Origin: Candidatus Edwardsbacteria bacterium RifOxyA12_full_54_48
Lineage (GTDB): Bacteria > Edwardsbacteria > AC1 > EtOH8
NCBI GenBank assembly: GCA_001777915.1
Contig: MFFN01000004.1
Span: 681,744-745,743 of the forward strand
Length of the DNA: 64,000 nucleotides
Direction of reading: 5' to 3'
Shown: positions 2,574 through 35,233 of the stretch, one piece after another
Layout of the letters: each line of letters opens with the position of its first letter
Numbering within the stretch: the stretch's first letter is position 1
The notes under the pieces: generated by a model
What the model saw: the letters and a program-made list of their open reading frames with translations, nothing else
Databases searched by the model: none
Told to the model about the DNA's origin: nothing
Program-made: the position numbers and the translations under genes

Positions 2574-5072
2574 TTAGGCGGCAAATCGCTGCCGGATGTC
2601 CTCGATTATCTGTTGTTCCCAAACGATGCCGGAATTACCGTTTGGCATGGTGCAGGACGAGAAACCCATAGACCGGAGCATGCGGGATATCTTGTGGGGT
2701 GTGAAATGGTAACGTTCTTGCCGATCCACATTGTATCCGTCTGTAATATCCTTGACAGCTAACATGCCGTGATCAACCCTCTGCTCCAAAAGGATCAATA
2801 TATTGAATAACTGGGCTTCTGAACTGTTCCGCTGGGACATTTTCCGTTCTGCGTCAAGTTGCCGGGCAAATTGGACGAAATGGTCGCTACCCTCGGGGTG
2901 GACCAGCATCAAGATTTGGTGTAATGGTTTTAGGATATCGCCCAGCCGGGATAACCCTGGGATTTTGTCCATATCCGGTAAGCCGGTGTCCAAGTGCTTG
3001 GCCCGGAAAGCAACGAGTTTTTCCCTAAGCGGCAGGGCGTCTTTTTCCAGTACGTCATTATTGAATGTACGGCGCGCTTCCCGCAGGCTGAGTGTAATGC
3101 ACCGGCTTTCCAGGATATCGTCTATCGCTTCGTTGGAACTGACTATGGTGGGGCCAAAGGTCGAAAACGAGGTCATGTCCTCAAACGGGCCACGATCTGG
3201 ATAAAGCACTCTGGTTATTTGATTCTTTTTTTCAAAGCGGCTTAGGAGCAGATCATCACTCTGTGTCGCCAAAAGTCGCTTCCATAGGTCCCGAACGTCA
3301 AAAAACAGCGTGGCTCCTAAGTAGGTGGCAAACCGCATAACGTTTGCTTCCCGTAGTGATTGTTCCTGAATGCCCCGATAGGAAACAAAAGTAATACCTG
3401 CCCCCGTTCTTGTTTTACCCCTGGCTGGCAGGGCCGAAAAACAGAGGATTGGGAAGTATTCGCAATGCTCCTGAAAATATGTGAGCATATCCCAGCAGGC
3501 CAATACCCCATAGTAATCATCGGACGGCAATTCGGATATCGAGCGGTGATATTCGGCCAATTCTGTATATAATTGATGGCCAAACTCACCGGAGGTCATT
3601 TCCGGGCTGTTGTAATGCCGTAGCACTTCTTCGGCCCGAGGCAGCATCCAGCGGATACAATCCTTACGGGGTGGGATAAGGGCCTTTTCATCCTGCTCCA
3701 CCAGGCGCTGGATTTTAAGCTCACCATCCTGTTTTATCAGGAAGACAACCTCCCCGTTATCGTCGGCCAAATCCACCAGGCCTTCGAATTTGGCACACAT
3801 TTGAAGTTTCTTACCATCATCGGCATCAACCGCCTTGCCATCGTCCAGGTTTTTCTGGAATTCCTTGACCTTTTTCCTGTAGGCTGTAACCTCGGCCGTC
3901 GATAACCCAAACCGTTGCTTAATATCCCGGCTAAGGTATGTTTCAGCCTGCAATTTATCCAATAAGGCTAAATCCCTGAGGACAGGCTCAAGAACTGTTG
4001 GTAACTCTATCTTATCCGTATCCTGGGGAATCTGGAAGACGCGGTGCCGAATTATATCCTTGGCCTCTGCCATGAGGGTTTTGAACTCCTCCGGCGAATG
4101 TCCTTGAAAATACTCGTTCAGGTCGTTTCCCTCCGGCAAAGTCAGAATTCTCGCTTTACTGCCCAACATGGAACCAATTTTTAAAGCAGCCTGTTGTCCC
4201 GGGTTGTCAGCGTCCATAGCCACATATACCGTCTTGCACCTGGAAAAACGGTCAATGTACTCCGGTTTAAAGGACGACGTTCCTAGTACGGCGACGGACG
4301 GAAAACCTGCCTGTATCGCTGAAAGGCAGTCGGGAATGCCCTCGGTCAAGACAACGATCTCATGCCGTAAATCATCCTCATTATAAAGATATCGGATTTC
4401 GCCCTTGAGGTGTAAGTGTCTGGGTTCAATGTTCCCAAGGGCTCGGCCAGACATATGGACCACCTGACCGCGTTTGACGTTCGGGAATACGATCCGTCCG
4501 GCGAAATGGTCCTTATAATCCGCCCGCACTTTCACCAGGACACCGGCTTCAACGCATAATCCCGGTAGCTTATTACAGCCATCAATAAGATATTCGCCAA
4601 GAGTTCCGTCTCCATAGCCTACCTGGTGCCGTTTAATGGTATCTTCATTAAACCCGCGAATGTTAATCAAATATTCTTTGGCATCGGAAGATAACTGCTG
4701 GTGATGATACCAGGCGGCATGGTTTAAAATGGAGTCAATCTCTTTTTGCTTGGCAATCGCCAGTCGCTCTTCATCGGTAAAGGAGGGGAGGTCCATGCCG
4801 ATTTCCCCTGCTGTCATCCTCAAGGCCTCCATGAAGCTCATGCCATCTTGTAATTCCAAAAAACGGAAGACATCACCGCCCCGGCCACAACCAAAACATT
4901 TAAAGTACTGTCCTTTGGTGTTAACTGACAGGCTGGGGTTAGTATCGGTGTGAAAAGGGCAGAGGCCCTTATTATGACCGTCAAGTTTAACATACCGTCC
5001 AATCACCTCTGAGATGTCAATCCTTTCCTTGACCGTATCCACAAAATTCCTAATATCATTCATTCTTTTCAT
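2574..5072 (-). CDS. DnaG-like primase with zinc finger, Toprim domain and a C-terminal P-loop-like region
   Basis: Probably primes or drives replication of the excised element. The N terminus has a CHC2-type zinc finger (Cys38, His41, Cys59, Cys62 in CPFH...CFGC). A primase core follows, with a Toprim domain at about residues 235-330: acidic motif TEGIPD and a later DAD motif (VAMDADNPG). The C-terminal half has ALPARGKTRTG near residue 548, which resembles a Walker A loop, so a helicase or ATPase region is likely. At 832 residues it is longer than chromosomal DnaG and fits primase-helicase fusions of phages and mobile elements. The start overlaps the small upstream gene by 17 bp. An alternative start is Met4. 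Confidence 0.85.
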   Translation of the reverse strand: MKRMNDIRNFVDTVKERIDISEVIGRYVKLDGHNKGLCPFHTDTNPSLSVNTKGQYFKCFGCGRGGDVFRFLELQDGMSFMEALRMTAGEIGMDLPSFTDEERLAIAKQKEIDSILNHAAWYHHQQLSSDAKEYLINIRGFNEDTIKRHQVGYGDGTLGEYLIDGCNKLPGLCVEAGVLVKVRADYKDHFAGRIVFPNVKRGQVVHMSGRALGNIEPRHLHLKGEIRYLYNEDDLRHEIVVLTEGIPDCLSAIQAGFPSVAVLGTSSFKPEYIDRFSRCKTVYVAMDADNPGQQAALKIGSMLGSKARILTLPEGNDLNEYFQGHSPEEFKTLMAEAKDIIRHRVFQIPQDTDKIELPTVLEPVLRDLALLDKLQAETYLSRDIKQRFGLSTAEVTAYRKKVKEFQKNLDDGKAVDADDGKKLQMCAKFEGLVDLADDNGEVVFLIKQDGELKIQRLVEQDEKALIPPRKDCIRWMLPRAEEVLRHYNSPEMTSGEFGHQLYTELAEYHRSISELPSDDYYGVLACWDMLTYFQEHCEYFPILCFSALPARGKTRTGAGITFVSYRGIQEQSLREANVMRFATYLGATLFFDVRDLWKRLLATQSDDLLLSRFEKKNQITRVLYPDRGPFEDMTSFSTFGPTIVSSNEAIDDILESRCITLSLREARRTFNNDVLEKDALPLREKLVAFRAKHLDTGLPDMDKIPGLSRLGDILKPLHQILMLVHPEGSDHFVQFARQLDAERKMSQRNSSEAQLFNILILLEQRVDHGMLAVKDITDGYNVDRQERYHFTPHKISRMLRSMGFSSCTMPNGNSGIVWEQQIIEDIRQRFAA

Positions 5073-7526: not shown

Positions 7527-10322
7527 CTATTTCCTGGGCCTGGATTTCTTTTTACCAATGCTCGCCATTAACGGTGCGGTTATTTTCTCGTACAGCCCGA
7601 ATAAGTACTCTATCCGCTGGCGCTCACTATCAAAAGGCTGGGAACGATAACACAGATCTACCGCCCGATCCAATTCGGCATGGGCCTTTACCAATTTGGG
7701 CGGCATGGACAAGGGGTCATATAAGTCAGCCAAGGTAGAATCTGGGTATTCCATACGAACGTCCAGTACTGCCTGGGCAGCAACCTCCACGGACTTACGT
7801 TGCTTGGGGGATGGGTCCTCCGGCCATGGATAATTATTATAAACCAAGTTGCTTGAATAACGATATCGGGACTCTAATCGCCCGCATACTTGGCGAACCC
7901 AGACCATATGCATCATCGATGACAACACACCAAAATGGTACATACCAGCGTTAGGTACGCACGAACAACTATCATGAATAATAGTGGATGCCGGGAAGTA
8001 TCCAAAGGGAATGTATTTACGGGTCTCGGATGAATGCCGTGGTATTACGATATAACGTCCCTTTGGCTGCCTTATTTCCGCAAAAAGAGATGCCTCCGAT
8101 GCCTTGCGACGGGTCGGCTCCTTCTTGCTGGCAAGCCTAAAATCACGGACAGCTTCAACCCGTTTCCGTATTCCTGGAATATTCTTAATATCGGCCGGTG
8201 ATGCATCTACCAACCAAAGACACCAACGGGGTATAGAATACAGGTATTCTTCGGCACACAACAACGGCTTTAGATACTTCTTCGCCTCGGGATTTTCGTT
8301 TAAAAACGACTGGCGATCCTTTTCTTCAATTATCAAATGGCCGCCATCCGTTGGTTTATTCCCATACTCACATAACGGCACATTACAAATAGGTCTGCTC
8401 CTCGACAATACAGGTATATCACTGCCTTCGATCAAATAGGGGCTGATATTGCGTACAGTTTCAATTGTAACTTTACTGCCTTTGTCCTGGTAATCATAAA
8501 GACGCTTATTGGGTATATCATTGGTAGCAAAACCTATAATAACGACATGAACGTGGGCTTTGCCTCTTGCCTCGCTTTCCCACGGAAACGTGCGATGGGC
8601 AAAAAGTATTTTTATCTTATAATTAGCAAAAAGAAGCGACCAAAGTGCCCCAACCTGCTCGCCCTGGCTTATGGAACTGGTAGACACAAAACCAACTACT
8701 ATTTGGGTGCCTTGTATGTATTCGGCAGCTTTACGATACCAACCAGTCACATAATCTAATACACCAGTGCCTTTAGCTTTATCCCAAACTAAATCCATGT
8801 CTTCATTTTGATCTTCCGACATTAGATGTTTGCCAATGAATGGCGGATTGCCCAAAACATAACTGCACTTGCCCACCGGCAAGACCTTTTTCCAGTCCAA
8901 TCGCAGGGCATTATCGCAAACGATGGTTGGGCTCTTCCGCAACGGCAGTCGTACATAATATTCGCCAAAAGCCGCCGATAAAAGATTGTTCATCTGATGG
9001 TCCATCAGCCACATGGCAACCTCGGCAATGCGGGACGGCCATTCTTTGATCTCGATACCATAAAAAGCATCCACATCCAGTATAGACAAATGGCCGATAT
9101 CGTGCACCTGTTGACCGCCGTACATCTCTTTCAGCATGTCAATTTCCAACAATCGTAATTCTCGGTAAGTGATTACCAGGAAATTGCCGCAACCGCAAGC
9201 CGGGTCCAGGAACCTTAAACCGGTTAGCTTCTGATGGAACCGCTTTAACTCGGGTTTGTTCTTCTTTATTTTCTCAAACTCGGCCCGCAAGTCGTCAAGG
9301 AACAAGGACCGAACCACTTTTAAAATGTCTCTCTCTGAAGTATAATGACCTCCGGTCTGCCTGCGCTCCTTCGGTTCCATAACGGCCTGGAACAGGGAAC
9401 CAAATACCGCTGGGGATATCTGCGCCCAATCAAAATGGGTCGAGGCCAGCAGAGCATTTCTCATATCCCGGTTGAAATCGGCAAAGCCCAGATGTTCAGA
9501 GAAAAGATCGCCATTTACATAGGGAAAGGCGGCCAGAGTCTCGTCCAGGTTTTTCTGTCTCTTCTCTAGTGGCGTATTAAGCACTTCAAACAAACGGGCC
9601 AGGTGCAATCCTAAATCTGACCCATCGGCCGCCGTGCGATTTTCCAAATATAGGTGGAAAGCTTCCCGGTCAAATATTCCAGTGTCCTCGGCAAACAGGC
9701 AGAATAGCACTCGAACCAGAAAACGCTCCAACTCATGGCCGGAATATCCTCCAGCTTCCAACGCATCATGCAGATTACCAAGTCTGCCTACCGCTTCGAT
9801 GTTGATCGGGTCCTGGGCCTCAAAGACCTGCTGTTTGTAGCCTGGTATAAAGGCGAAAGAATGGATATTCTTGTGGAAGTCGGCCAATGTAAACTCGGTG
9901 GTCTGCACCCGCCATTGGTCGAATAAGGGAAGGTCAAGCTGTCTATCCGGCTCCAGGTCATGCAGGGCAACTCGGGCGAAATCGGAAACAATCACATATC
10001 GGGGTATTTCGTTGTGCCGGCCGGACCGGGCTAAATCTTGTATATACTGGAAGGCCTGGGAACCAGCTTTGCTCAGGTCTTTTCCCCGGCTTTTATGCTC
10101 CACCAATAAAAGTCCGCTCCAAAAAAGGTCAATATACCCGTATTGGCCTTTTATGTTTTTTACTGGCTCCTCAAAGCTGGCCACCACCCGGCGCTTGATA
10201 CCAAAAACGGCAAAAAACTCATCCCAGAATGTCTTGGCCTCGGCATCCTCGCGGGTTTCCGTGGCCCAATCGTGGGAAAAGGCTATGGCGTTATGTCTTA
10301 TTTCGTTCCAGCTTAGAGGCAT
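7527..10322 (-). CDS. MmeI-like (type IIL) fused restriction endonuclease-methyltransferase
   Basis: A single chain that would both modify and cut DNA. The N terminus has a PD-(D/E)XK-type nuclease pattern (YIDLFW then LLVEHKS, about residues 60-80). The middle has the adenine methyltransferase core: GGHYTSERDIL, motif I DPACGCGNF near residue 371 and catalytic motif IV NPPF near residue 490. The C-terminal third is the presumed target recognition region. The length of 931 residues fits the MmeI family, and the entire ORF is open. The basic tail KKKSRPRK ends the protein. As a one-gene system it protects the element and its host. It lies next to the ABC-3C operon on the same strand but 150 bp apart. 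Confidence 0.88.
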   Translation of the reverse strand: MPLSWNEIRHNAIAFSHDWATETREDAEAKTFWDEFFAVFGIKRRVVASFEEPVKNIKGQYGYIDLFWSGLLLVEHKSRGKDLSKAGSQAFQYIQDLARSGRHNEIPRYVIVSDFARVALHDLEPDRQLDLPLFDQWRVQTTEFTLADFHKNIHSFAFIPGYKQQVFEAQDPINIEAVGRLGNLHDALEAGGYSGHELERFLVRVLFCLFAEDTGIFDREAFHLYLENRTAADGSDLGLHLARLFEVLNTPLEKRQKNLDETLAAFPYVNGDLFSEHLGFADFNRDMRNALLASTHFDWAQISPAVFGSLFQAVMEPKERRQTGGHYTSERDILKVVRSLFLDDLRAEFEKIKKNKPELKRFHQKLTGLRFLDPACGCGNFLVITYRELRLLEIDMLKEMYGGQQVHDIGHLSILDVDAFYGIEIKEWPSRIAEVAMWLMDHQMNNLLSAAFGEYYVRLPLRKSPTIVCDNALRLDWKKVLPVGKCSYVLGNPPFIGKHLMSEDQNEDMDLVWDKAKGTGVLDYVTGWYRKAAEYIQGTQIVVGFVSTSSISQGEQVGALWSLLFANYKIKILFAHRTFPWESEARGKAHVHVVIIGFATNDIPNKRLYDYQDKGSKVTIETVRNISPYLIEGSDIPVLSRSRPICNVPLCEYGNKPTDGGHLIIEEKDRQSFLNENPEAKKYLKPLLCAEEYLYSIPRWCLWLVDASPADIKNIPGIRKRVEAVRDFRLASKKEPTRRKASEASLFAEIRQPKGRYIVIPRHSSETRKYIPFGYFPASTIIHDSCSCVPNAGMYHFGVLSSMMHMVWVRQVCGRLESRYRYSSNLVYNNYPWPEDPSPKQRKSVEVAAQAVLDVRMEYPDSTLADLYDPLSMPPKLVKAHAELDRAVDLCYRSQPFDSERQRIEYLFGLYEKITAPLMASIGKKKSRPRK

Positions 10323-10473
10323 TAATTATATCTCAATTGTATTATAACAAGAACGCCGTTGTCTTCCGTCATAATCAAGGCAATAATAAATAATATTAAA
10401 AGAGACCAGCGCATATTATTGTTAATACGATGGCCCTAAAATACATGTGTTTTAAAAGGAAAGGACTCTCTTT

Positions 10474-12462
10474 TCATTTTACCAACCACTCTTGCGGAAC
10501 AAGTTTTTTGCCACCTCTCCATTCTTCCACCATATTCACATTGGGCAACTTCCCCCAAATGGATTCCGGGGCATGATCTAATACAACAATTTGGAAATCT
10601 TTATTTGCATCAGAAATCACCTTAGAAAACACTTCAAATGCTTTGCGAACAGCTTCAACATCTTCATCAAGATACTGTGGATCATCATCGACCAAATTTC
10701 TTTTGCCTGCTAATTTTTTTGGGAAATATACTTGGCTTGGTTGGTCAAATACTATGAAATTTGGAACGGGGTTTTGTTTTAATCCCTGAAAATATTGATG
10801 AAGCCCTAACAGCACGGCAATATGATAAGATAGCCAATTTGAACCACTGCCAATTTCCCACAGGAAATCTTTTCTGTCTACGTTTTGTATGGAAATAGTC
10901 AAATCATCAATTGATAACATAATGGGAAGTTCCGGCTTTTCGCAATCTAAGTTTGGTAATAATTTACCAGCATTTAGGTTCACGGCGTTAACCGCACGAT
11001 TTGTTCTTTCCTTAACATTTCCCACGGAGATTAATTTTTCTAATTTTGTGACTCTCTCCTGAAGGTCAACAATTTCTACAGTTAGATCTTTATCTGTACC
11101 AAGACTTTCATATACTTCTAACGCTTGTTCAATATTACCTATGAATCGTGATATCGTCAAAGTGTCGTATTGCCTTTTACGAGCCTCATCTGATGTATTT
11201 TCAAGTTGGCGGATTCGAATACGTATACCTTTCAATTTATCGCACACAATGTCCAACTCATTTCGGACCCGCTCATACTCACGATCAAACACAATTGGGA
11301 TCGTATCAAAATCCCCACTATTAGATTCAATATCTTGTAAAGCATTTTGTAACTTTTGCAATTCTGATGTAGCTTTTTCCATTTGACTCCCACATAAAGG
11401 ACAGTCATGCTTGGGTGTATTCAATGTCCCCATCCAATTGGATACCTTTAAGCGCTCACGTTGTATCGCCAATGCAGATTTGTACTCACTTACAGTTTCA
11501 CGAAGGTTAGTCATTTCCAACAATCGTTGGCGAAGACTTGAAACCTCAAAAGCAATAGATTTTTCTTCTTTATTTAGGGCCATCAACTCCGTTATAGCTT
11601 CAGTTACTGTTGTTGAAGTTGTTCGTGCTTCCCATTCATGTGATTTTACAATTTCATTTAAAATATCAATTAACTCAGATACTGTGGTGGTAGAAATCAC
11701 ACTTTTTGTTGTCAACCCATATTCTTTTGCTTCAGAGACCCTAGTTTTGATATCTGCAATCCAACGTTCTGATGTTTGACGTAGATTCTTTAATTCACTT
11801 TGCTTTTTCCGAAGATCTCTTCTTAACGTAGAGAGTTCATGCTGTTTAGCTAATAAGCCAGCTGTTATTGCCCCAAGAATATAAGGGAAAATGCTTTTCA
11901 ACTTTTCTCTATGTTCATAGGTATCAGCTTTATAAAATAAAACATCTGGATTGGCAATTATATTCTGTGGCTGAAAAATAAAAGCTCCAAGATCACGGAA
12001 ACTGGGCCGCCCACTGAAACCAGAGCCTGTTTCTGCAAAATCGAAATTGAGCGCCGTCAAGCCTGACAACGAATCAAGAGTATGCTTGACAACATCGCTC
12101 GTTGTGTTTTTTTCTTTGATATATTTAGGTATAAGAATGTTCTTACCTTCCAATATGTACATATCACTCGTCGATTTCTGAATGCCTGGTTCCCTCCTGG
12201 CAAATAGCTTTTGATCAGTTTCGGTTTCCACAAGCAAACCGAACCAGCCACATGCATCTCTAATCGTGTTCACCGGAATAGTACATTTTTCAGAACCCAA
12301 GCAATAGTCTATGATAGGTATAATCGCTGATTTGCCAGTTCTGGAGGCCCCGGTTATTACATTAATACTGCCGCTTTGAAACGGTAATATTCTAGGATCG
12401 TGGGAGAAATCCTTAGGCCATAGAATTATACTTTTAATCTGTAATTTCATACTATAATCCAA
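10474..12462 (-). CDS. ABC-3C system ATPase (DUF3732, Rad50/RecN-like)
   Basis: SMC/ABC-type ATPase of an ABC three-component conflict system. Walker A is GASRTGKSA (residues 38-46). A long coiled coil surrounds a Rad50-like zinc-hook motif (CPLCG, near residue 355). The Walker B region is FIVFDQPSQVYFP near residue 560, which is the DUF3732 signature, and a conserved LDHAPES follows. The gene overlaps the middle-component gene by 11 bp (alternative start Met5), so the three proteins are made together. ATP-driven sensing of aberrant DNA is the presumed role by analogy with Rad50-like proteins; the trigger is unknown. Confidence 0.87.
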   Translation of the reverse strand: MDYSMKLQIKSIILWPKDFSHDPRILPFQSGSINVITGASRTGKSAIIPIIDYCLGSEKCTIPVNTIRDACGWFGLLVETETDQKLFARREPGIQKSTSDMYILEGKNILIPKYIKEKNTTSDVVKHTLDSLSGLTALNFDFAETGSGFSGRPSFRDLGAFIFQPQNIIANPDVLFYKADTYEHREKLKSIFPYILGAITAGLLAKQHELSTLRRDLRKKQSELKNLRQTSERWIADIKTRVSEAKEYGLTTKSVISTTTVSELIDILNEIVKSHEWEARTTSTTVTEAITELMALNKEEKSIAFEVSSLRQRLLEMTNLRETVSEYKSALAIQRERLKVSNWMGTLNTPKHDCPLCGSQMEKATSELQKLQNALQDIESNSGDFDTIPIVFDREYERVRNELDIVCDKLKGIRIRIRQLENTSDEARKRQYDTLTISRFIGNIEQALEVYESLGTDKDLTVEIVDLQERVTKLEKLISVGNVKERTNRAVNAVNLNAGKLLPNLDCEKPELPIMLSIDDLTISIQNVDRKDFLWEIGSGSNWLSYHIAVLLGLHQYFQGLKQNPVPNFIVFDQPSQVYFPKKLAGKRNLVDDDPQYLDEDVEAVRKAFEVFSKVISDANKDFQIVVLDHAPESIWGKLPNVNMVEEWRGGKKLVPQEWLVK

Positions 12463-28184: not shown

Positions 28185-28380
28185 CATTAAAAAGCCGGTT
28201 TTTCTTGTTGCGCAAAAGACTATTTTCATGTAATATTATCGGGCCGTATTTTGCCAGAAGAAATGCCCCGGCAGACCGATGTTTCTTCTGGGTGGACCGG
28301 CCCATGGGAAATTCAGGCGGTCTGCGGCCGGCCAATGTCTGGTGTTTTCAATTGACAGAATGATCACGGGAAGGAACGAT

Positions 28381-31300
28381 ATGGAGAACGACGGATTTCC
28401 CCGGCGCTATAAGATGATCCGGACCCTGGGGCAGGGCGGCTTCGGTCGGGTATTCCTGGCCAGGGACCTGGCGGCCGGCAGGGACGTGGCATTGAAGATG
28501 GCCTCCGGGCCATTTTGTCATTTGTTGAGGAACGAGTACATCCGGCTGCACCGGTTCCGGCATCCCGGGCTTCCGGAGGTTTACGACTTTTCGCTTTCCC
28601 CCCAAGGGGAAAGCGGGTATCTGTCCCTGGAATACTGCCCCGGGGAGTCCCTTTCCCAGATGCTGGCCCCGGGGGCCATGCCCCCGGCCGACGCCCTGCC
28701 CATTCTGGAAAAGCTTTGCCGGATCCTGTCGTACCTTCATCAGCGGGGCCTGGTCCATGGTGATATAAAACCCGATAACGTCATGGTCTCCGGCCTTTCG
28801 GTCAAATTGCTGGATCTGGGACAGGCCGGAACCGCCGGGGCCGCCCCGGGCTGCGGCACGCCGGCCTATGCCCCGCCCGAATCGCTGTCGGGACAGGGCG
28901 CCATTATCCGGGCGTCAGACGTCTACAGTCTGGGCCTGCTGCTGTTCCAGATGCTGACCGGGGAACTTCCCCGCCCGGAGGTCAGGCTCAACCGGAACGA
29001 GCCCCTGGCGGTCCAAATAAAAGAACGCTTTTCGGGGCCGGTGGCTGATCTGCTGGTAAAAATGCTTCGTTACGATCCCATCGAGCGGTACGATTCTGCC
29101 GGGTCTCTGCTGGAGGCGGGCTGCCAGGCCGGGATATTTTCCCCGGATCAGGAACTGGTGAGGTTCGCTTACGCATCGTCCCCGGCGGCTTTGCGGGAAG
29201 CCTTGGGTCATGATGACCCGGCCAAACCACGTCTGGTGAAGCTGGCCGGCGGGCAGGGAAGCGGCCGGACCGGCCTGTTGAAAGAGATCGATTTTATCAG
29301 CCGGCTCAGGGGCCGGGACAGCTATTACCTGGACCTGAAAAGCCTCCCGAAAAACGATATCCCGGATTTTGATTTCGCCGAAGGCGCCCTTCTTCTGATC
29401 GACCATATAAAGCCTTTCGATCCCCGGCTGGAAAAACTGTCCGGGACGGGGCGCTGGAGCATAATCTGCGCCGGAGGGGGCCCCGACGATCCTTCAGTCC
29501 CATCCACGGCGCGAGAGATTTCAATTGGGCCGGCCACGGAAGATCTTTATCGCCGTATCTTAAAAGGCTGTTTTGAGGATATCAGCCTCTATGACCTGGG
29601 TCTGCTGGCATGCCGGATTTGCGAGGAAACCGGCGATGATGTTGGGCGGGCCGAGGAGCTGATCCAATTTTACCTGCGGAGCGGGTGGATCTCAAAAAAG
29701 GAGAAGATCCGGCAGGTCAAATGGCCGGAGATCCTGGCCAATCAGGACCTTCCGGAAAACGGTGCCAGGAGGCTGTCCGATTGGTGGCAGGACCTGTCGG
29801 CCGACCAGAAAACCCTGGCTGGGGCCGCAGCCCTGGGCCAGCTTCCTGCCGGGCAGCCCCTACCGGACCGGTTAAGATACAGGATCGTAAAACGGGGCGA
29901 AAGGTACGCCATAAGCGATGAACAATGTTTAAGGCTGGTGATGGCCGGCTGGGGGCCGGACCAACGCCGGGAACTGATCGGACAGATCGAGCACCAGCCG
30001 GACCCCACCAGCGATTTTTTCTGCCGGGAGGCATACCGGACCTGGTTGCCGGATGGCGAACAGCGGATCCGCCTGACCACCCGGCTGTATGCCAAGATCC
30101 GGCAGCGGGGCGACATCCATCGCACCCTGTTGTTGGCCCGGGAGCTTTTGGCAACGGAAACAACCGATGGGGCCTTTTACCGGGAACTGGCAGAGCAGAT
30201 CACCGACCTGTGCTGCCGGATGGGCCGCTGGAGCGAGGCCCTGGAGTCTTGGCAAAAACTGGAAAATTCCCGGGGCCGGGACTGGAAATACTGGAAGCGG
30301 CTGTTCTATATCATTTCCAACGGCAAGTTTTATGAGGAGGCGGAGAACAAGATAAAACTTCTGGCCGGGAGGATCGGTGAGCTGGATCCGGAATTGGCCC
30401 TTTTAGGCCAGAGTTATCAGGGATATCTCCGGGGGATCAGGGACGGCTCCGATGATTCGGACCGGATCCTGCGGGAATGCCTGAGCAGAGGAAAGGAACT
30501 GGGCAGCCCCAGGGCCATGATGGCTGCCGCCGAGCTGCAGGGCATATATCATTATCAGAAAAGCCGCTGGGATCTGGCCATAGAACCCCTGGAGACGGCA
30601 ATGCAGCTATGGAACCAGGATACCGCTGGTTATGAAAAATCCCGGATCCTGGCTTTTTACGGGAACACCCTGGGGATACTGGGTTCCCCGGAGAAGGCCA
30701 GGGACAGACTGGAAGAGGCCGTCTCCCATGCCGCCTCAGCGATCCCGGATCAGGCCCTGGGAAAGATGCACTACAGCTTGGGGTCGGTATATTTTAACCT
30801 CCGGGATTGGGACCGGGCCGAGGAGGCATATCGGCAGAGCATGTACCACCTGATGGGCGTCGGCAGCCAGCAGTATTTAACAGAAGCCCTGACCGGCCTG
30901 GCAAACATCGCCATGAACAAGGGCGGCTATGCGGCGGCCCACCGGTTCCTTCTGGCGCTTTTGGCCGGAGCCGGCAAAGGGGACCGGGAGCGCGGCCTGA
31001 CAGCCAGTCTGTCCAACCTGAGCATCGTCGAAAGCCTGTTGGGCCAAAAGGAGCTGGCGGCAATCCATATCGCCAAGGCGCTGGAGATCAGCCGACGACC
31101 GGACAGCGTTTGCGGTCCGGCGGCAGTGCTGAAGGTCAGGGCCGGTCTGGAGCTGGAACAGGGTAAGTGGCCCCGGGCCATTGCCACCTATCAAGAAGCA
31201 ATGGAGAATTATCACCAGCTGGGCATTGCTCCGGATCCCGAGATATTGGCCGACCTGTCCTTTGCCGAGCACCGGAACGGCAATACCAGCCTGGCCCGGG

Positions 31301-33117
31301 AATACCTGTCCCGGGCGAAAGAAAATCCCCAGAATAACAGCATATTAACCGGTCAGATAAAAATCGTGGAGGGCATTCTGCAAATGGTCGATGATAACAC
31401 CGGAAAACAGGGTTTGAAAACAGCGATCGAGGCCGGACGGGAGCTTATGGAGAAAGGAGATAGATTCAATGCCGCCAACTGTTGGCTGCGGGCGGCCGAG
31501 GAAGCGGTCGAGCGGGGCCGCCCGGAGTTGCTGGAAAAAGTCCTGCCCTGGCTGGTCCGGGCCGAATCTCTATTCATCGAAATGGGAACCCCCGATCACT
31601 TGGGCAGGGCCCGGGAGATGATGCTTCGGGCGAACCGCATCTGCTTCGACCGGCCGGACCGGGAAACATTTTCACCAAACCTGCTGAACGGCATCTATCG
31701 GCTGGCCGGCCTGCTGGCCACCGAAGTGGGCCAGCGGGATCTGGCTGGCGAATCGCTCAAGCTGGCGCTGGAGATGACCGGCGCGGAACGCGGGGCCCTT
31801 TTCCTGCTGGACCAAGACCTGCAGATAACCATGGTCGCTCAGATAGACCTGGATGACCAGACCAGAAAGGACGCCCTGGAATTTTCGGCCACCGCCGTCC
31901 GGGCCGCCGCCGGCCAGGGCCGGCTGATCATATCCAATGACGCCTCTTTGGATGAGGCCTTCCGCTCGCGGCTCAGCGTGCAGCGAAACATCATCCGCTC
32001 GCTGCTGTGCGTCCCCCTGCATTTTCGGGAAGGGGCGGCCGGGGCCGTCTATCTGGACTCCCGGGTCACCAGCGGCCTGTTCGGGGACAGACAGAGGGAG
32101 TTCCTGCTGGCCCTGGCCGGCATCATCGGGGCGGTCCTGGAAAGCGGCCAGCTGATCAGCCGGCTCCGTTTCGATCAAGCGGCGGCCGGATCCCAGGAGA
32201 ACGACATCTCCGACTTGATCATCGGCCAATCTCCCCCGGTCAGGCAGATGATCCAGCGGATCAAGACCGTTGCCCAGGCGGACATCACCGTCATGCTGGA
32301 CGGCGAATCAGGATCCGGCAAGGAACTGGCGGCTTTGGCGGTCCACAGATTATCGTTCCGGGGGAAGCGCAAGTTCCTGGCCCTGGATTGCGGCTCGCTT
32401 CCGGAGACCCTGTTGGAATCGGAGCTGTTCGGTTATGTTAGGGGTGCCTTCACCGGCGCCGGCAAAGACAAGCCCGGACTGTTCGAATCGGCCGATGGCG
32501 GCACGGTATTCTTGGACGAGATCGCCAGCGCCAGCCAGGCGGTTCAGTCCCGCTTGCTGAGGGTGCTGGAGAGTGGGGAGATCAGAAGGGTGGGAGAGTC
32601 CGAGAGCCGGACGGTGGACGTCCGGGTGATCTGCGCCACCAATAAAGATCTGGAGACAGAGATCAACGAAGGCCGTTTTAGGGAGGACCTGTACTATCGG
32701 CTTAAGGTGATGACCATTCCCATTCCCCCGTTAAGGGAAAGGAGCGGAGACATACTGCTGTTGACCGAATATTTCAAAGAAAAGTATTGCCGCAAATTCG
32801 GCAAGATCGGGCTCCGGTTTGATTCCGAGGCCAAGCAGCAGATGATCGGACATGTCTGGCCGGGCAACGTCCGTGAATTGGAGAATACCGTCCAAAGGGC
32901 GGTGCTGCTGACGAATAAAAAGGCCATCACCCCCAGGGAACTGGAGATATCCCCGGGTTTGAGCGAAGGCCAGAATAAATATCAGAACGATCGTCGCCCG
33001 GATATACTCGAGGCCGTTAAAAATTTTAATGGAAATATCTCTCAAGCGGCCAAAGCATTAGGGGTATCCCGCCGTCATCTGTACCGGCTGATGGAAAAAC
33101 ACAATATTAAAGTGTGA
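28381..33117 (+). CDS. Ser/Thr kinase-TPR-GAF-sigma54 activator fusion protein
   Basis: 1578 residues. N-terminal Hanks-type kinase: GQGGFGRVF glycine loop, VALK lysine, HGDIKPDN catalytic loop near 125, DLG instead of DFG, PPE, SDVYSLG. A region with ATPase/STAND-like features follows (about 270-450), then TPR-like helices (about 570-1010), a GAF domain (about 1110-1260) and a sigma54-interaction AAA+ domain: Walker A GESGSGKE near 1308, GAFTGA near 1353 for sigma54 contact, and GTVFLDE. A Fis-type HTH ends the protein (NISQAAKALGVSRRHLYRLM). Start at 28381 follows GGAAGG; the longer frame upstream overlaps the terminator region. It probably senses a signal through kinase/GAF and activates sigma54 promoters. 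Confidence 0.88.
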   Translation: MENDGFPRRYKMIRTLGQGGFGRVFLARDLAAGRDVALKMASGPFCHLLRNEYIRLHRFRHPGLPEVYDFSLSPQGESGYLSLEYCPGESLSQMLAPGAMPPADALPILEKLCRILSYLHQRGLVHGDIKPDNVMVSGLSVKLLDLGQAGTAGAAPGCGTPAYAPPESLSGQGAIIRASDVYSLGLLLFQMLTGELPRPEVRLNRNEPLAVQIKERFSGPVADLLVKMLRYDPIERYDSAGSLLEAGCQAGIFSPDQELVRFAYASSPAALREALGHDDPAKPRLVKLAGGQGSGRTGLLKEIDFISRLRGRDSYYLDLKSLPKNDIPDFDFAEGALLLIDHIKPFDPRLEKLSGTGRWSIICAGGGPDDPSVPSTAREISIGPATEDLYRRILKGCFEDISLYDLGLLACRICEETGDDVGRAEELIQFYLRSGWISKKEKIRQVKWPEILANQDLPENGARRLSDWWQDLSADQKTLAGAAALGQLPAGQPLPDRLRYRIVKRGERYAISDEQCLRLVMAGWGPDQRRELIGQIEHQPDPTSDFFCREAYRTWLPDGEQRIRLTTRLYAKIRQRGDIHRTLLLARELLATETTDGAFYRELAEQITDLCCRMGRWSEALESWQKLENSRGRDWKYWKRLFYIISNGKFYEEAENKIKLLAGRIGELDPELALLGQSYQGYLRGIRDGSDDSDRILRECLSRGKELGSPRAMMAAAELQGIYHYQKSRWDLAIEPLETAMQLWNQDTAGYEKSRILAFYGNTLGILGSPEKARDRLEEAVSHAASAIPDQALGKMHYSLGSVYFNLRDWDRAEEAYRQSMYHLMGVGSQQYLTEALTGLANIAMNKGGYAAAHRFLLALLAGAGKGDRERGLTASLSNLSIVESLLGQKELAAIHIAKALEISRRPDSVCGPAAVLKVRAGLELEQGKWPRAIATYQEAMENYHQLGIAPDPEILADLSFAEHRNGNTSLAREYLSRAKENPQNNSILTGQIKIVEGILQMVDDNTGKQGLKTAIEAGRELMEKGDRFNAANCWLRAAEEAVERGRPELLEKVLPWLVRAESLFIEMGTPDHLGRAREMMLRANRICFDRPDRETFSPNLLNGIYRLAGLLATEVGQRDLAGESLKLALEMTGAERGALFLLDQDLQITMVAQIDLDDQTRKDALEFSATAVRAAAGQGRLIISNDASLDEAFRSRLSVQRNIIRSLLCVPLHFREGAAGAVYLDSRVTSGLFGDRQREFLLALAGIIGAVLESGQLISRLRFDQAAAGSQENDISDLIIGQSPPVRQMIQRIKTVAQADITVMLDGESGSGKELAALAVHRLSFRGKRKFLALDCGSLPETLLESELFGYVRGAFTGAGKDKPGLFESADGGTVFLDEIASASQAVQSRLLRVLESGEIRRVGESESRTVDVRVICATNKDLETEINEGRFREDLYYRLKVMTIPIPPLRERSGDILLLTEYFKEKYCRKFGKIGLRFDSEAKQQMIGHVWPGNVRELENTVQRAVLLTNKKAITPRELEISPGLSEGQNKYQNDRRPDILEAVKNFNGNISQAAKALGVSRRHLYRLMEKHNIKV

Positions 33118-33203
33118 CATTGTGTAAAAAGTGAGACCCAGGGACACATATTTTGTTACTTAAGTAAAATGAACAAGTTATAATATATTATAGTCGTTTA
33201 ATT

Positions 33204-33240
33204 AAAGCGACTGAGACATAATGTCTCAGTCGCTTTTTGT
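33204..33240 (+). terminator. Terminator after the sigma54 activator
   Basis: 13-bp stem AAGCGACTGAGAC/GTCTCAGTCGCTT with a short ATAAT loop, followed by TTTTTG and more T. Confidence 0.85.
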
Positions 33241-33314
33241 TTTTTTCTCCCATCTGAACCACCGTGAAATGGTAAAGACCGTAAAATCAATGAGTTGTAA
33301 TAAATATATATTTT

Positions 33315-33330
33315 TGGCACGATTAATGAA
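33315..33330 (+). promoter_or_regulatory. Possible sigma54 (-24/-12) promoter
   Basis: TGGCAC (33315-33320, preceded by T and followed by GA) is a perfect -24 element. After the standard spacing the -12 element reads ATGAA where TTGCA is expected, so the second half is poor. It lies ~50 bp upstream of the small peptide gene and directly downstream of a sigma54 activator gene. Confidence 0.4.
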
Positions 33331-33380
33331 ACTATAAAAGACAGATGCTCAAACAATCAATCAATAAAATCGGAGACAAA

Positions 33381-33524
33381 ATGAAAAAACTGATTTCCTC
33401 TTTACTGCTGGCAATTCTGCTGGCTTCCCTGGCTGGAACCACTATCGGCTTTGCCGATGACGATCCGCCCCCCACCCCTAACGTGGTCTACCCGGTGCCT
33501 CCGCCTCCTCCGGACGAATTTTAA
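33381..33524 (+). CDS. Small secreted proline-rich peptide
   Basis: 47 residues. Classic signal peptide: MKK, hydrophobic core LISSLLLAILLASLAG, cleavage after GFA. The mature part has about 22 residues, is acidic at both ends and proline-rich (DDDPPPTPNVVYPVPPPPPDEF split by no cysteine). The start has an AGGAG-like site (GGAGAC). Not recognised. Position next to a sigma54 activator with sensor domains, behind a candidate -24 element, makes a signalling peptide or surface-acting peptide possible; a structural role cannot be excluded. Too short for most gene finders. Confidence 0.6.
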   Translation: MKKLISSLLLAILLASLAGTTIGFADDDPPPTPNVVYPVPPPPPDEF

Positions 33525-33545
33525 CCAAAGGTGAAAGGCCGATCA

Positions 33546-33587
33546 ATTTACTGCCGGTCAGGTGGAATTGCCGGCCCGGCAGTAAAT
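33546..33587 (+). promoter_or_regulatory. 12-bp perfect inverted repeat between small genes
   Basis: ATTTACTGCCGG (33546-33557) and CCGGCAGTAAAT (33576-33587) with an 18-bp loop. No T tract follows, so it may be a processing or attenuation hairpin between the peptide gene and the LSm-like gene. Confidence 0.6.
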
Positions 33588-33605
33588 AAAGCTTGAGGAA
33601 TAAAT

Positions 33606-33794
33606 ATGTACGATAGAATCCACATATACCATTTTCTGCTTAACAACGGCAGGGAATATTATGGAAAGGTGCTGGCCCACGACCGGGACAAGATCGTGAT
33701 CAGCGCCCTGAGGCTGGCCGAGCAGCCTCGCCGGGTGATCCTGTACCAGAACTCAATGGTAATGGCCGAAAGGATGGATGGACGGGGCTTTTAA
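33606..33794 (+). CDS. Small LSm/Hfq-like protein
   Basis: 62 residues. The pattern LNNGREYYGKVLAHDRDKIV followed by VILYQNSMVMAE resembles an Sm1/Sm2 arrangement as in Hfq (NG-x-x-x-x-G-x-x-x-x-x-D, then YK-HAI). It is shorter than Hfq and lacks the canonical KH motif (YQNS instead). It could bind RNA as a ring, or be an unrelated small beta-barrel. Ribosome site GAGGAA upstream. It overlaps the receiver-domain gene by 17 bp. Confidence 0.5.
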   Translation: MYDRIHIYHFLLNNGREYYGKVLAHDRDKIVISALRLAEQPRRVILYQNSMVMAERMDGRGF

Positions 33795-34431
33795 GGCCGG
33801 CTCAAACCCGGCCCCGGTCGGATCATCAGGGCCAGGCGGTCAGGAGGCGGATAAAACCATTCTGCTGGCGGGGGACCAGAAAGCCATGCGGGAGGTGGAG
33901 GCTTTTCTTCTCCAGAACAAGGGTTATGCCGTTCTGACCGCCGACAGCATTAGTCGGGCCGAACAGCTTTTTGGAGAGAACCGGCAAGCGGTCCGGCTGT
34001 TGCTCACCGACCTGGTCCTGCCGGACGGCAGCGGCGTCGAATTGCACCGGAAATTGACCGGGATCAAGCCGGAGTTGGTGACCCTGATAGTTTCCGGCAG
34101 CCGGCCCGGCCCGGGAGAGATCCCCCGGGAAGCCCAATTCATGAAGAAGCCGTTCGCCCTGGCGGAGCTGCACCAAAGATTGACCCAGGCCCTGGAACGC
34201 CCCGATGGTTTCGGCAAAAAGCCGCCGCCGGTCTGCGGGCTGGCTCATCGGTTTCCGGCCGATCAGACCGATCTGTTTGCCCGGGGATTTGAATTTGCCT
34301 GTTGTGATTCCCGGGATTGCCCCTACAAGAAGGTACACCAGCGCCGCAAGTACTGCTTCTATCCACGGGCCGGCGGCGACGAGAATTTAAACGAGGAGGT
34401 TAACGGATGTTCTTTTCCGAGCAGACCCTGA
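33778..34431 (+). CDS. Receiver-domain (CheY-like) protein with cysteine-rich tail
   Basis: 217 residues. After a ~22-residue lead, a receiver domain spans about 25-150: TILLAGDQKAM (only one of the usual two acidic residues), phosphorylation-site strand LLLTDLVLPDG, LIVSGS, and FMKKPFALAEL with the conserved lysine. No classic output domain follows; instead a tail with PPVCGL, FACCDSRDCPYKK and KYCFYP, perhaps a zinc site. It probably acts through protein contacts. Overlaps the LSm-like gene and is followed by an HNH-like gene after overlap, suggesting one operon. Confidence 0.7.
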   Translation: MDGAFKAGSNPAPVGSSGPGGQEADKTILLAGDQKAMREVEAFLLQNKGYAVLTADSISRAEQLFGENRQAVRLLLTDLVLPDGSGVELHRKLTGIKPELVTLIVSGSRPGPGEIPREAQFMKKPFALAELHQRLTQALERPDGFGKKPPPVCGLAHRFPADQTDLFARGFEFACCDSRDCPYKKVHQRRKYCFYPRAGGDENLNEEVNGCSFPSRP

Positions 34432-34664
34432 AAAAAGCCTGGGCCAGGGCCGAAGGAAAGTGTGAATCGACCAAGGTGGTTGATGGGCGTAAAGTGCCCT
34501 GCAGTCGCGGCCTGCATTGGGACAAGCACGGCATGCTGCATGAACCGGAGGGCTGGCTTGCCCGCCATCGGGTGCAACTGGCCAACGGTATCATCGACAT
34601 CGCCGCCAACTGTGAGGTTGTTTGCCGGGAGTGCCACCGGCAGGCAACATTGGAGACCGGCTGA
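34407..34664 (+). CDS. Small HNH-like zinc protein
   Basis: 85 residues. Cysteines at EGKCES and VPCSRG, then RHR, and NCEVVCRECHRQ at the end. The last part matches the C-terminal CxxCH piece of HNH nucleases, but the catalytic histidine pair is not clear (RHR instead of HH). Start at 34407 follows GGAGG and overlaps the receiver gene by 25 bp. Nuclease function is uncertain. Confidence 0.55.
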   Translation: MFFSEQTLKKAWARAEGKCESTKVVDGRKVPCSRGLHWDKHGMLHEPEGWLARHRVQLANGIIDIAANCEVVCRECHRQATLETG

Positions 34665-35233
34665 AACCGGGAGACCCCTTACTTTTCTGTAGGCCAGAAA
34701 AGTAACAAAAGCCTGTCCTGAGCAGGACCCATGCAAAGCAAACGAAGGAAGCCTTTACCGCCCGGCAGGATGAACAGGCGGTAATTGTCAACCAACAAAC
34801 CGTTAAGCCTCTAAGTGTGCTCAGGATGACAAGATCTTTTTCTCGCCAAAGCAAAATTGCCGCAGGCGGGGAGCCGGGGGTCTGAACTCATCCCTGCCCT
34901 TCTCTTGGCAAGAGAAGGGAAAGAGGGTTGAGTTGGTGTAATTTAATTGCCGAAGGCAAAAGAGTTTTTTACCTTCGACGCTTCCCCGGCCAAGCTTGGG
35001 TTTCCTATAGTGTTACTTTCTTGTGACCAAGAAAGTAACCAAAGAAGTCTTGCCCGCCCGACAATTTCCGGCAGGAATGATATCCCCGGACTAAATTCCT
35101 TGACCGGGGCGGGGAGCCAGGCTCCGCAATGAATTTTATACGTCCGCTTCAGCCTAAGCAAAATTGTCGCAGGCGGGGAACGGGGGACGGTCCCATACCT
35201 CTGAGTCGAATATAACCCATAGGAGACAGGGAG
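34665..35233. repeat. Intergenic region with two related long repeats
   Basis: Copy 1 (about 34680-34890) begins with palindrome TTACTTTTCT...AGAAAAGTAA and ends with GCAAAATTGCCGCAGGCGGG. Copy 2 (about 35011-35190) begins with GTTACTTTCTTG...CAAGAAAGTAAC and ends with GCAAAATTGTCGCAGGCGGG. The palindrome plus the end box occur in the same order and similar spacing. This looks like a dispersed non-coding repeat family; no gene is credible here. Confidence 0.65.

What the first reader, a model, noticed from the sequence alone, without database searches (positions are those of the whole stretch)
33315..33524. Secreted 47-residue proline-rich peptide behind a possible sigma54 promoter
Seen: signal peptide plus a ~22-residue mature peptide rich in Pro and Asp, a perfect -24 TTGGCACGA with a weak -12, all directly downstream of the sigma54 activator. 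Inference: a peptide signal or surface peptide controlled by the neighbour. It is easily missed because it is short.
Basis: partly seen in the sequence, partly recalled or inferred. Interest (0 to 1): 0.65.

Follow-up and report, generated by a model that had tools for sequence, protein, structure and literature searches.

The report
Sigma54-switched exported proline-rich peptide
A very short gene beside a large kinase-type transcription activator really does make an exported, proline-rich peptide; nine related uncultured bacteria keep the gene, its switch and its place, although the export tag was swapped in one genus, so the peptide probably acts outside the cell as a message or a weapon under its neighbour's control.

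Summary
ORF 33381-33521 (47 aa) carries a Sec-type signal plus a 22-residue Pro/Asp-rich tail, behind TTGGCACG with a weak -12 (GA). The peptide sits directly downstream of a kinase-STAND-TPR-GAF-sigma54-Fis activator in 9 genomes of Candidatus Edwardsbacteria and is under purifying selection (dN/dS about 0.08-0.33). The promoter is conserved as GG-N10-G, with GC at -12 in some relatives. Above it lie two dyads about 80 bp apart. The proximal palindrome TGAGACATNATGTCTCA has exactly three perfect copies in the genome. All three are 96-106 bp upstream of such a promoter: one drives this peptide, one an LCAT-like lipase, one a secreted protein followed by an RHS protein. Relatives repeat the pattern, so the activator very probably runs a small sigma54 regulon headed by the peptide.

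Unexpected: in genus g2 the peptide at the same place has a double-glycine leader instead of a Sec signal, and both g2 genomes encode a C39 exporter. Export and the Pro-rich tail are kept while the route changes. The next gene encodes an Sm/Hfq-fold protein.

The regulatory link and export are well supported by comparison. What the peptide does outside (signal or effector) is inferred. No expression or binding data exist.

The parts
28279..33117 (+). activator: Ser/Thr kinase - STAND-like - TPR - GAF - sigma54 AAA+ (GAFTGA) - Fis HTH, 1612 aa
   Evidence: Pfam: Pkinase 1.2e-35, TPR, GAF 3.6e-10, Sigma54_activat 1.3e-65, HTH_8 1.2e-6. Kinase residues, Walker A, GAFTGA and HTH conserved in relatives; STAND P-loop by eye.
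33132..33148 (.). distal dyad (degenerate), TGAGACCCAGGGACACA, centre 176 bp upstream of the -24 GG
   Evidence: 6/8 symmetric here; better preserved at the same spacing in relatives.
33204..33236 (+). terminator-like hairpin of the activator gene, 15-bp stem then T-run, enclosing the proximal dyad
   Evidence: (MFE -23.8, z -8.5)
33212..33228 (.). proximal dyad TGAGACATAATGTCTCA, probable enhancer (UAS) of the activator, centre 96 bp upstream of the -24 GG
   Evidence: three perfect copies in the 2.7-Mb genome, all in front of sigma54-type promoters
33314..33329 (+). sigma54-type promoter TTGGCACGATTAATGA (-24 GG 33316-33317, -12 GA 33328-33329)
   Evidence: GG-N10-G kept in all 12 promoters tabulated and in a 13th
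33381..33524 (+). peptide gene, 47 aa: Sec-type signal (about 33381-33455) + mature Pro/Asp-rich peptide (about 33456-33521)
33546..33587 (+). hairpin between peptide gene and next gene (possible attenuator)
   Evidence: z -2.4; comparable GC-rich hairpins seen by eye in G001, G003, G004, G007, not G006/G009
33606..33794 (+). 62-aa Sm/Hfq-fold protein
   Evidence: 8 of 8 loci where the contig continues; AlphaFold2 pLDDT 85.8, five strands; Foldseek Hfq, prob 1.00, TMq 0.74
33778..34431 (+). receiver domain + Cys/His C-terminal module, 217 aa (two ORFs in G001/G003)
   Evidence: Response_reg 6.3e-10
34407..34664 (+). HNH-like / zinc-knuckle protein, 85 aa, kept in relatives
   Evidence: weak HNH match E 0.007, below cut-off; homologues

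Best explanation
The feature is the first gene of a sigma54-dependent operon that heads a small regulon. The upstream kinase-STAND-TPR-GAF-AAA+-Fis activator integrates an internal signal (kinase, GAF and/or TPR), binds the paired dyads 96-188 bp upstream, and uses its AAA+ ring to open sigma54 polymerase at TTGGCACG-N5-TGA. The product is exported (Sec here, a double-glycine/C39 route in a sister genus) and releases a 16-24-residue Pro-rich peptide. Comparative genomics supports the operon, enhancers, promoter, export and regulon. Activator binding to the dyads, transcription start, cleavage and release are inferred. Most likely role (about 0.4): an extracellular signalling peptide encoded immediately downstream of its TPR-bearing activator, analogous in layout to the Gram-positive PlcR/Rap type. 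An exported effector is the main alternative (about 0.3).
For: Peptide behind the activator in 9 genomes; dN/dS 0.08-0.33. TGGCAY-N5-WTG in 12 of 12 promoters; proximal dyad 88-120 bp above GG, and a distal dyad, where recognised, 80-82 bp further up (68 bp at one locus). Palindrome: 3 perfect copies, all three at such promoters, none among the reversed-pattern controls at up to 2 mismatches in four related genomes. The promoter pattern occurs 4 times in 128,000 strand-bases, so a hit in the 33-bp slot has p about 1e-3 per palindrome. A further promoter was found where expected: the G002 lipase locus. The lipase gene is in the peptide neighbourhood in G001/G003 but behind its own dyads and promoter in G000/G002. 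RpoN in 10/10 genomes. Two export routes with a similar Pro-rich tail. Signal role: TPR region present; STAND/TPR is the least conserved part of the activator. UAS at 100-250 bp and the TTGGCATNNNNNTTGCT consensus are usual for sigma54 (PMC6615313). Bacillales RRNPPA pheromones are encoded immediately downstream of their receptor and exported by Sec (PMC9765709).
Against: No expression, footprint or peptidomic data; most of the genomes are drafts, those named being metagenome assemblies. The own -12 is GA, not GC. The activator is cytoplasmic and no peptide importer or surface receptor was found or sought. Fast STAND/TPR divergence is also normal for scaffolds. The nine loci are one family, not nine independent tests. 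Orthology of g2 (double-glycine) and g1/g4 (Sec) peptides rests on position and composition, not alignment. Other secreted products in the regulon also fit an effector role.
Confidence: 0.65

Rival explanations
1. The exported peptide is an effector (a bacteriocin- or microcin-like peptide, or one that acts on a partner or host), and the operon is part of a sigma54-controlled exported arsenal.
For: The g2 form has a leader that fits the C39/PCAT rule and both g2 genomes encode a C39 ABC transporter next to a membrane-fusion-like protein (rule in PMC6363468). The regulon also holds a secreted FlgD_ig/Por-tail protein followed by an RHS protein, and an LCAT-like lipase. The mature sequence diverges between genera.
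Against: The mature peptide is acidic or neutral, not cationic, and very short (16-24 aa). No immunity-like membrane protein sits next to it. The single NCBIfam bacteriocin_sig hit is below cut-off (E 0.14). The next genes are an Sm-fold protein and a receiver, not an immunity set.
Confidence: 0.3
2. A membrane-anchored or surface peptide: the hydrophobic segment is not cleaved and the Pro-rich tail protrudes into the periplasm as a spacer or docking tail.
For: The hydrophobic segment is long; polyproline makes a stiff rod (general knowledge); the cleavage site is only moderately good in G001 (by eye).
Against: The double-glycine form in G004/G007 has no hydrophobic anchor yet keeps the tail, place and promoter.
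Confidence: 0.13
3. A cis-acting arrest peptide (SecM-like): signal sequence plus polyproline end stalls ribosomes and tunes translation of the Sm-fold gene downstream.
For: Sec signal plus terminal PPPPP, gene directly upstream of another, hairpin in between.
Against: The last residues are not conserved (PPPPPDEF, PPLPPIEP, PPPPR, PPPPL, PPPVRP). Distance to the next gene varies from 34 to about 170 nt. The double-glycine form lacks a Sec signal, so it cannot sense pulling.
Confidence: 0.06
4. The palindrome is only the activator's terminator and the peptide is transcribed from a sigma70-type promoter; the -24 match is chance.
For: The palindrome is a fine terminator (15-bp stem, z -8.5). TGGCAC-type matches are common by themselves.
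Against: The same palindrome recurs at two other places in the genome in front of unrelated genes with the same promoter spacing. A second dyad without a T-run recurs about 80 bp away. GG-N10-G is kept in 13 of 13 promoters.
Confidence: 0.05

Closest known systems
sigma54 operon with its bacterial enhancer-binding protein (NtrC/NifA/FhlA class) encoded next door
   Same: AAA+ with GAFTGA, Fis HTH, paired dyads 90-220 bp upstream, GG-N10-G promoter, rpoN in the genome
   Different: The regulatory part is a Ser/Thr kinase + STAND-like + TPR + GAF instead of a receiver alone; the proximal dyad sits inside a terminator-like hairpin; the -12 is GA here
RRNPPA peptide-pheromone systems of Bacillota (PlcR-PapR, NprR-NprX, Rap-Phr; PMC9765709)
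   Same: TPR-bearing regulator followed immediately by a gene for a short Sec-exported peptide
   Different: No RRNPPA receptor fold was tested for; the HTH is C-terminal Fis type; about 1600 aa with kinase and AAA+; diderm candidate phylum; binding and reimport unknown
Double-glycine leader peptides with C39 (PCAT) exporters, including class II microcins and bacteriocin-type signals (PMC6363468)
   Same: G004/G007 leaders end in GG with Leu-12, Leu/Met-7 and Ile-4; C39 transporter in both genomes
   Different: The window's own peptide has a Sec-type signal and its genome has no C39 match; core only 16 aa, Pro-rich, no modification enzymes in the locus
Hfq / Sm-like proteins (for the next gene, 33606-33794)
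   Same: five-stranded Sm fold in the AlphaFold2 model; superposes on Listeria Hfq
   Different: no N-terminal helix, no Pfam Hfq match, only found in this phylum among 386 genomes

Membership tests
sigma54-dependent promoter | GG at -24 and a G 10 bp later at -12, GC preferred | tested here: met
   GG-N10-G in 12/12 plus one more; GC at -12 in G004, G007 and G003:C31, GA in the window (the second base is off consensus)
sigma54-dependent promoter | activator sites about 100-250 bp upstream (PMC6615313) | tested here: met
   proximal dyad 96 bp, distal 176 bp; range 88-120 and 157-220 in the set
sigma54-dependent promoter | rpoN in the genome and an activator with GAFTGA | tested here: met
sigma54-dependent promoter | transcript start and RpoN dependence | not testable with these tools
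   no RNA data for this uncultured organism
double-glycine leader peptide | GG preceded by hydrophobic -4, -7, -12 | tested here: not met
   not met by the window peptide (Sec type); met by its positional equivalents in G004 and G007 (against PMC6363468)
double-glycine leader peptide | C39 peptidase transporter in the genome | tested here: not met
   none in the own genome G000; present in G004 and G007, also in G002 and G003
RRNPPA quorum sensing | TPR receptor encoded immediately upstream of a Sec-exported pro-peptide | tested here: met
   TPR region in Pfam; peptide is the next gene, with a hydrophobic N-terminal segment. Layout only.
RRNPPA quorum sensing | RRNPPA receptor homology (small protein, N-terminal HTH or Rap phosphatase part) | tested here: not met
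   the HTH is C-terminal Fis type in a 1612-aa kinase/AAA+ protein; no RRNPPA family among the Pfam and NCBIfam rows listed
RRNPPA quorum sensing | mature peptide is reimported and binds the TPR groove | not testable with these tools
   needs binding assays; oligopeptide importers were not searched for
proline-rich antimicrobial peptides | cationic, Arg/Pro-rich | tested here: not met
   net charge -5 to 0 in all nine
SecM-type arrest peptide | conserved arrest motif at the C-terminus | tested here: not met
   C-termini vary
Hfq/Sm (next gene) | Sm fold | tested here: met
   (Foldseek E only 6e-3, probability 1.00)
Hfq/Sm (next gene) | Pfam Hfq profile match | tested here: not met
   an Sm-like protein, not an Hfq by sequence

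The most novel reading that the evidence does not exclude
A peptide-communication system in a diderm candidate phylum: a kinase-STAND-TPR-GAF sigma54 activator whose cognate exported Pro-rich peptide is encoded next door and feeds back on it, with the export route switched from Sec to double-glycine (or the reverse) while the peptide's place and tail were kept.
Probability: 0.3. Interest if true: 0.8.

Novelty: new variant of a known kind. Interest (0 to 1): 0.56.

Why it matters
Peptide signalling through TPR regulators is known from Gram-positive bacteria (PMC9765709). A TPR-bearing sigma54 activator with its own exported peptide in an uncultured diderm phylum would extend it to a new regulator class. 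The Sec/double-glycine swap at a fixed genomic position is a natural experiment showing that export matters more than the route. Defined dyads, promoter and three target operons make the regulon directly testable in a reporter strain. It also shows that genes under 50 codons in candidate phyla can be found by their regulation.

Tried and rejected
(1) Genome-wide consensus scan for the -24/-12 promoter: no enrichment over the reversed control, so the match alone proves nothing. (2) Searching the peptide by sequence outside the genus: only noise; the family-wide members were found by position. (3) Pfam, NCBIfam and PHROGs for the peptide and neighbours: no family for the peptide. (4) Relatives of the Sm-like protein in IMG/VR: none. 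(5) Rfam on 33000-35000: only sub-threshold hits. (6) First density count of the promoter pattern used a wrong spacing (and one search found nothing for that reason); corrected. (7) Kinase-type activators in other phyla: G012 has one followed by TGGCAAGAAAAATGC and a large secreted protein, G043 has none; no small peptide in either. (8) Literature: no paper found on the system; 13 papers mention Edwardsbacteria.

Full report
WHAT IS THERE. The window lies in a 2.7-Mb genome (G000, contig C4:681744-745743). Its closest named relatives are Candidatus Edwardsbacteria / UBP2 metagenome assemblies. The finding is real: TTGGCACG at 33314, and a 47-codon ORF from 33381 with a good ribosome-binding site and a signal-peptide-like N-terminus followed by DDDPPPTPNVVYPVPPPPPDEF. 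The longer 59-aa reading (33345) is rejected because it has no Shine-Dalgarno sequence, begins about 5 nt from the predicted transcript start, and its extension is not in frame in G001. The upstream gene 28279-33117 encodes a Ser/Thr kinase, a STAND-like part (P-loop by eye), TPRs, GAF, sigma54 AAA+ with GAFTGA, and a Fis HTH.

THE PEPTIDE IS A CONSERVED GENE. Sequence search finds it at the same place in all four genomes of the genus. Reading the DNA downstream of the orthologous activator gives an equivalent gene in five further genomes of two other genera. G005 (genus g3, 89% complete) lacks both a full activator match and the Sm-like neighbour. In all pairs of close relatives synonymous exceeds nonsynonymous divergence (dN/dS 0.08-0.33; the genes are short, so values are rough).

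LEADER SWAP. Genera g1 (G000-G003) and g4 (G006, G008, G009) have a Sec-type N-terminus. Genus g2 (G004, G007) has MKVLDKAMLSRIKGG and MKVLDKALMMKIKGG in front of DTIDPPLPPPPPPIIP and DEIDPPVPPTPPPVRP. These leaders have Leu-12, Leu/Met-7, Ile-4 and GG, the residues that C39 proteases read in LahT (PMC6363468). G004 and G007 both encode a C39 transporter; G000 has none. In G004 it is next to a membrane-fusion-like gene. C39 transporters also occur in G002 and G003, so their presence is necessary for the idea but not diagnostic. That the g2 and g1/g4 genes are equivalents rests on position, promoter, dyads, the next gene and Pro-rich tail; the sequences are too short to align with confidence.

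PROMOTER AND ENHANCERS. Twelve promoters were tabulated: nine peptide loci, the lipase and RHS-associated loci of G000, and one locus of G003. All have TGGCAY-N5-WTG, that is GG-N10-G. GC at -12 is found in G004 (the downstream of its two candidates), G007 and G003:C31; the others have GA or GG. A dyad is centred 88-120 bp above the GG. A second lies 80-82 bp further up in G000, G001, G003, G004, G006, G007 and the G000 lipase locus, and 68 bp further up in G003:C31. The scan did not recognise the second dyad in G002, G008, G009 and the RHS locus. Half-sites are GACAT-N-ATGTC in g1 and GACAT-NN-ATGTC in g2 and g4. A thirteenth promoter, in front of the lipase gene of G002, was found by following a two-mismatch hit and has both dyads and TTGGCATGAATCTTGG.

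THE REGULON. TGAGACATNATGTCTCA has exactly three perfect copies in the genome (about 6e-4 expected from base counts). Each is followed, 96-106 bp on and in the right orientation, by the promoter pattern, which occurs only 4 times in the 128,000 strand-bases of the window. The chance for the three slots together is of the order of 1e-9; AT-rich intergenic sequence makes this a rough figure. Targets: this operon; an LCAT/PGAP1-like hydrolase (L112:12080-13324), with a CheC-like gene further on; a secreted protein with FlgD_ig/Por_Secre_tail domains followed by an RHS protein (L113). The hydrolase gene lies in the peptide neighbourhood in G001 and G003 but behind its own dyads in G000 and G002, an independent sign that the sites share a regulator. 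G003:C31 drives a 434-aa protein that by eye resembles one in the G006 peptide neighbourhood; Pfam knows neither. That the neighbouring activator is the protein that binds the dyads is inference: they adjoin its gene in every genome, and its HTH and the dyads both vary by genus.

TERMINATOR AND ENHANCER IN ONE. The proximal dyad lies in a hairpin followed by a T-run on the promoter side in nearly all loci (weaker by that script in G002, where a mismatch interrupts the stem). At 33204-33236 it has a 15-bp stem, MFE -23.8 kcal/mol, z -8.5. It probably ends the upstream gene and insulates the promoter, while the DNA form binds the activator. This is an inference.

NEXT GENE. The 62-aa protein at 33606-33794 is predicted as a five-stranded Sm fold (pLDDT 85.8). 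Foldseek ranks Hfq chains high (Listeria Hfq: probability 1.00, TM 0.74, rmsd 1.0 A; E 6e-3), although the three best rows are one cytochrome. Profile searches do not call it Hfq. No Hfq over the cut-off was found in the ten genomes. Among 386 genomes it occurs in eight of the family (two other hits at E 0.004 are marginal); the ninth peptide contig (G008) ends before it.

HOW IT PROBABLY WORKS. Shown by comparison: operon, promoter, paired dyads, purifying selection, persistence of an export signal of two kinds. Inferred: activator binding, sigma54 dependence, cleavage, release. Function: a role outside the cytoplasm is favoured because the export signal, not its type, is conserved. A signalling role is placed first (about 0.4) because the peptide is the first gene after a TPR-bearing activator, the layout of Bacillales RRNPPA systems (PMC9765709), and because the STAND/TPR part diverges fastest (16-38% between genera against 54-79% for GAF and AAA+). 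An effector role is close behind (about 0.3). An arrest peptide is unlikely.

NOVELTY. sigma54 operons with adjacent activators are ordinary. A TPR/kinase activator heading a regulon whose first product is an exported Pro-rich peptide with two interchangeable leaders was not found in the literature searched; that library is partial and one query was malformed.

Noticed in passing
window 33606-33794: 62-aa Sm/Hfq-fold protein restricted to this phylum, conserved right behind the peptide; no Hfq over the Pfam cut-off was found in these ten genomes.
   Followed up: partly
window 33204-33236; L106, L108, L122 near base 1500: The proximal enhancer palindrome is embedded in a terminator-like hairpin with a T-run facing the promoter at nearly all regulon loci: a terminator and enhancer in one element.
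   Followed up: partly
L113:3737-8862 (minus strand): A third regulon promoter drives a secreted FlgD_ig/Por-tail protein followed by a 1443-aa RHS-repeat protein.
   Followed up: partly
L112:12080-13324: LCAT/PGAP1-like hydrolase behind its own copy of the dyads and promoter in G000 and G002, but in the peptide neighbourhood in G001/G003.
   Followed up: yes
L134:527-5245 of the reverse complement (G012, other phylum): A 1572-aa kinase-type sigma54 activator is followed by TGGCAAGAAAAATGC and a large secreted protein: perhaps the same logic with another target.
   Followed up: partly
window 7527-12462: Type IIG restriction-methylation protein and an LmuB-like (Lamassu) ATPase, with a recombinase-like ORF at 842-2446 and a DnaG-like ORF at 2574-5072: a defence or mobile island upstream.
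   Followed up: partly
window 28279-33117: The GAF domain of the activator is nearly as conserved between genera (54-76%) as the AAA+ domain, suggesting a conserved small ligand.
   Followed up: no
window 33546-33587: Hairpin between peptide and Sm-like gene, possibly limiting read-through so that the peptide is made in excess.
   Followed up: partly
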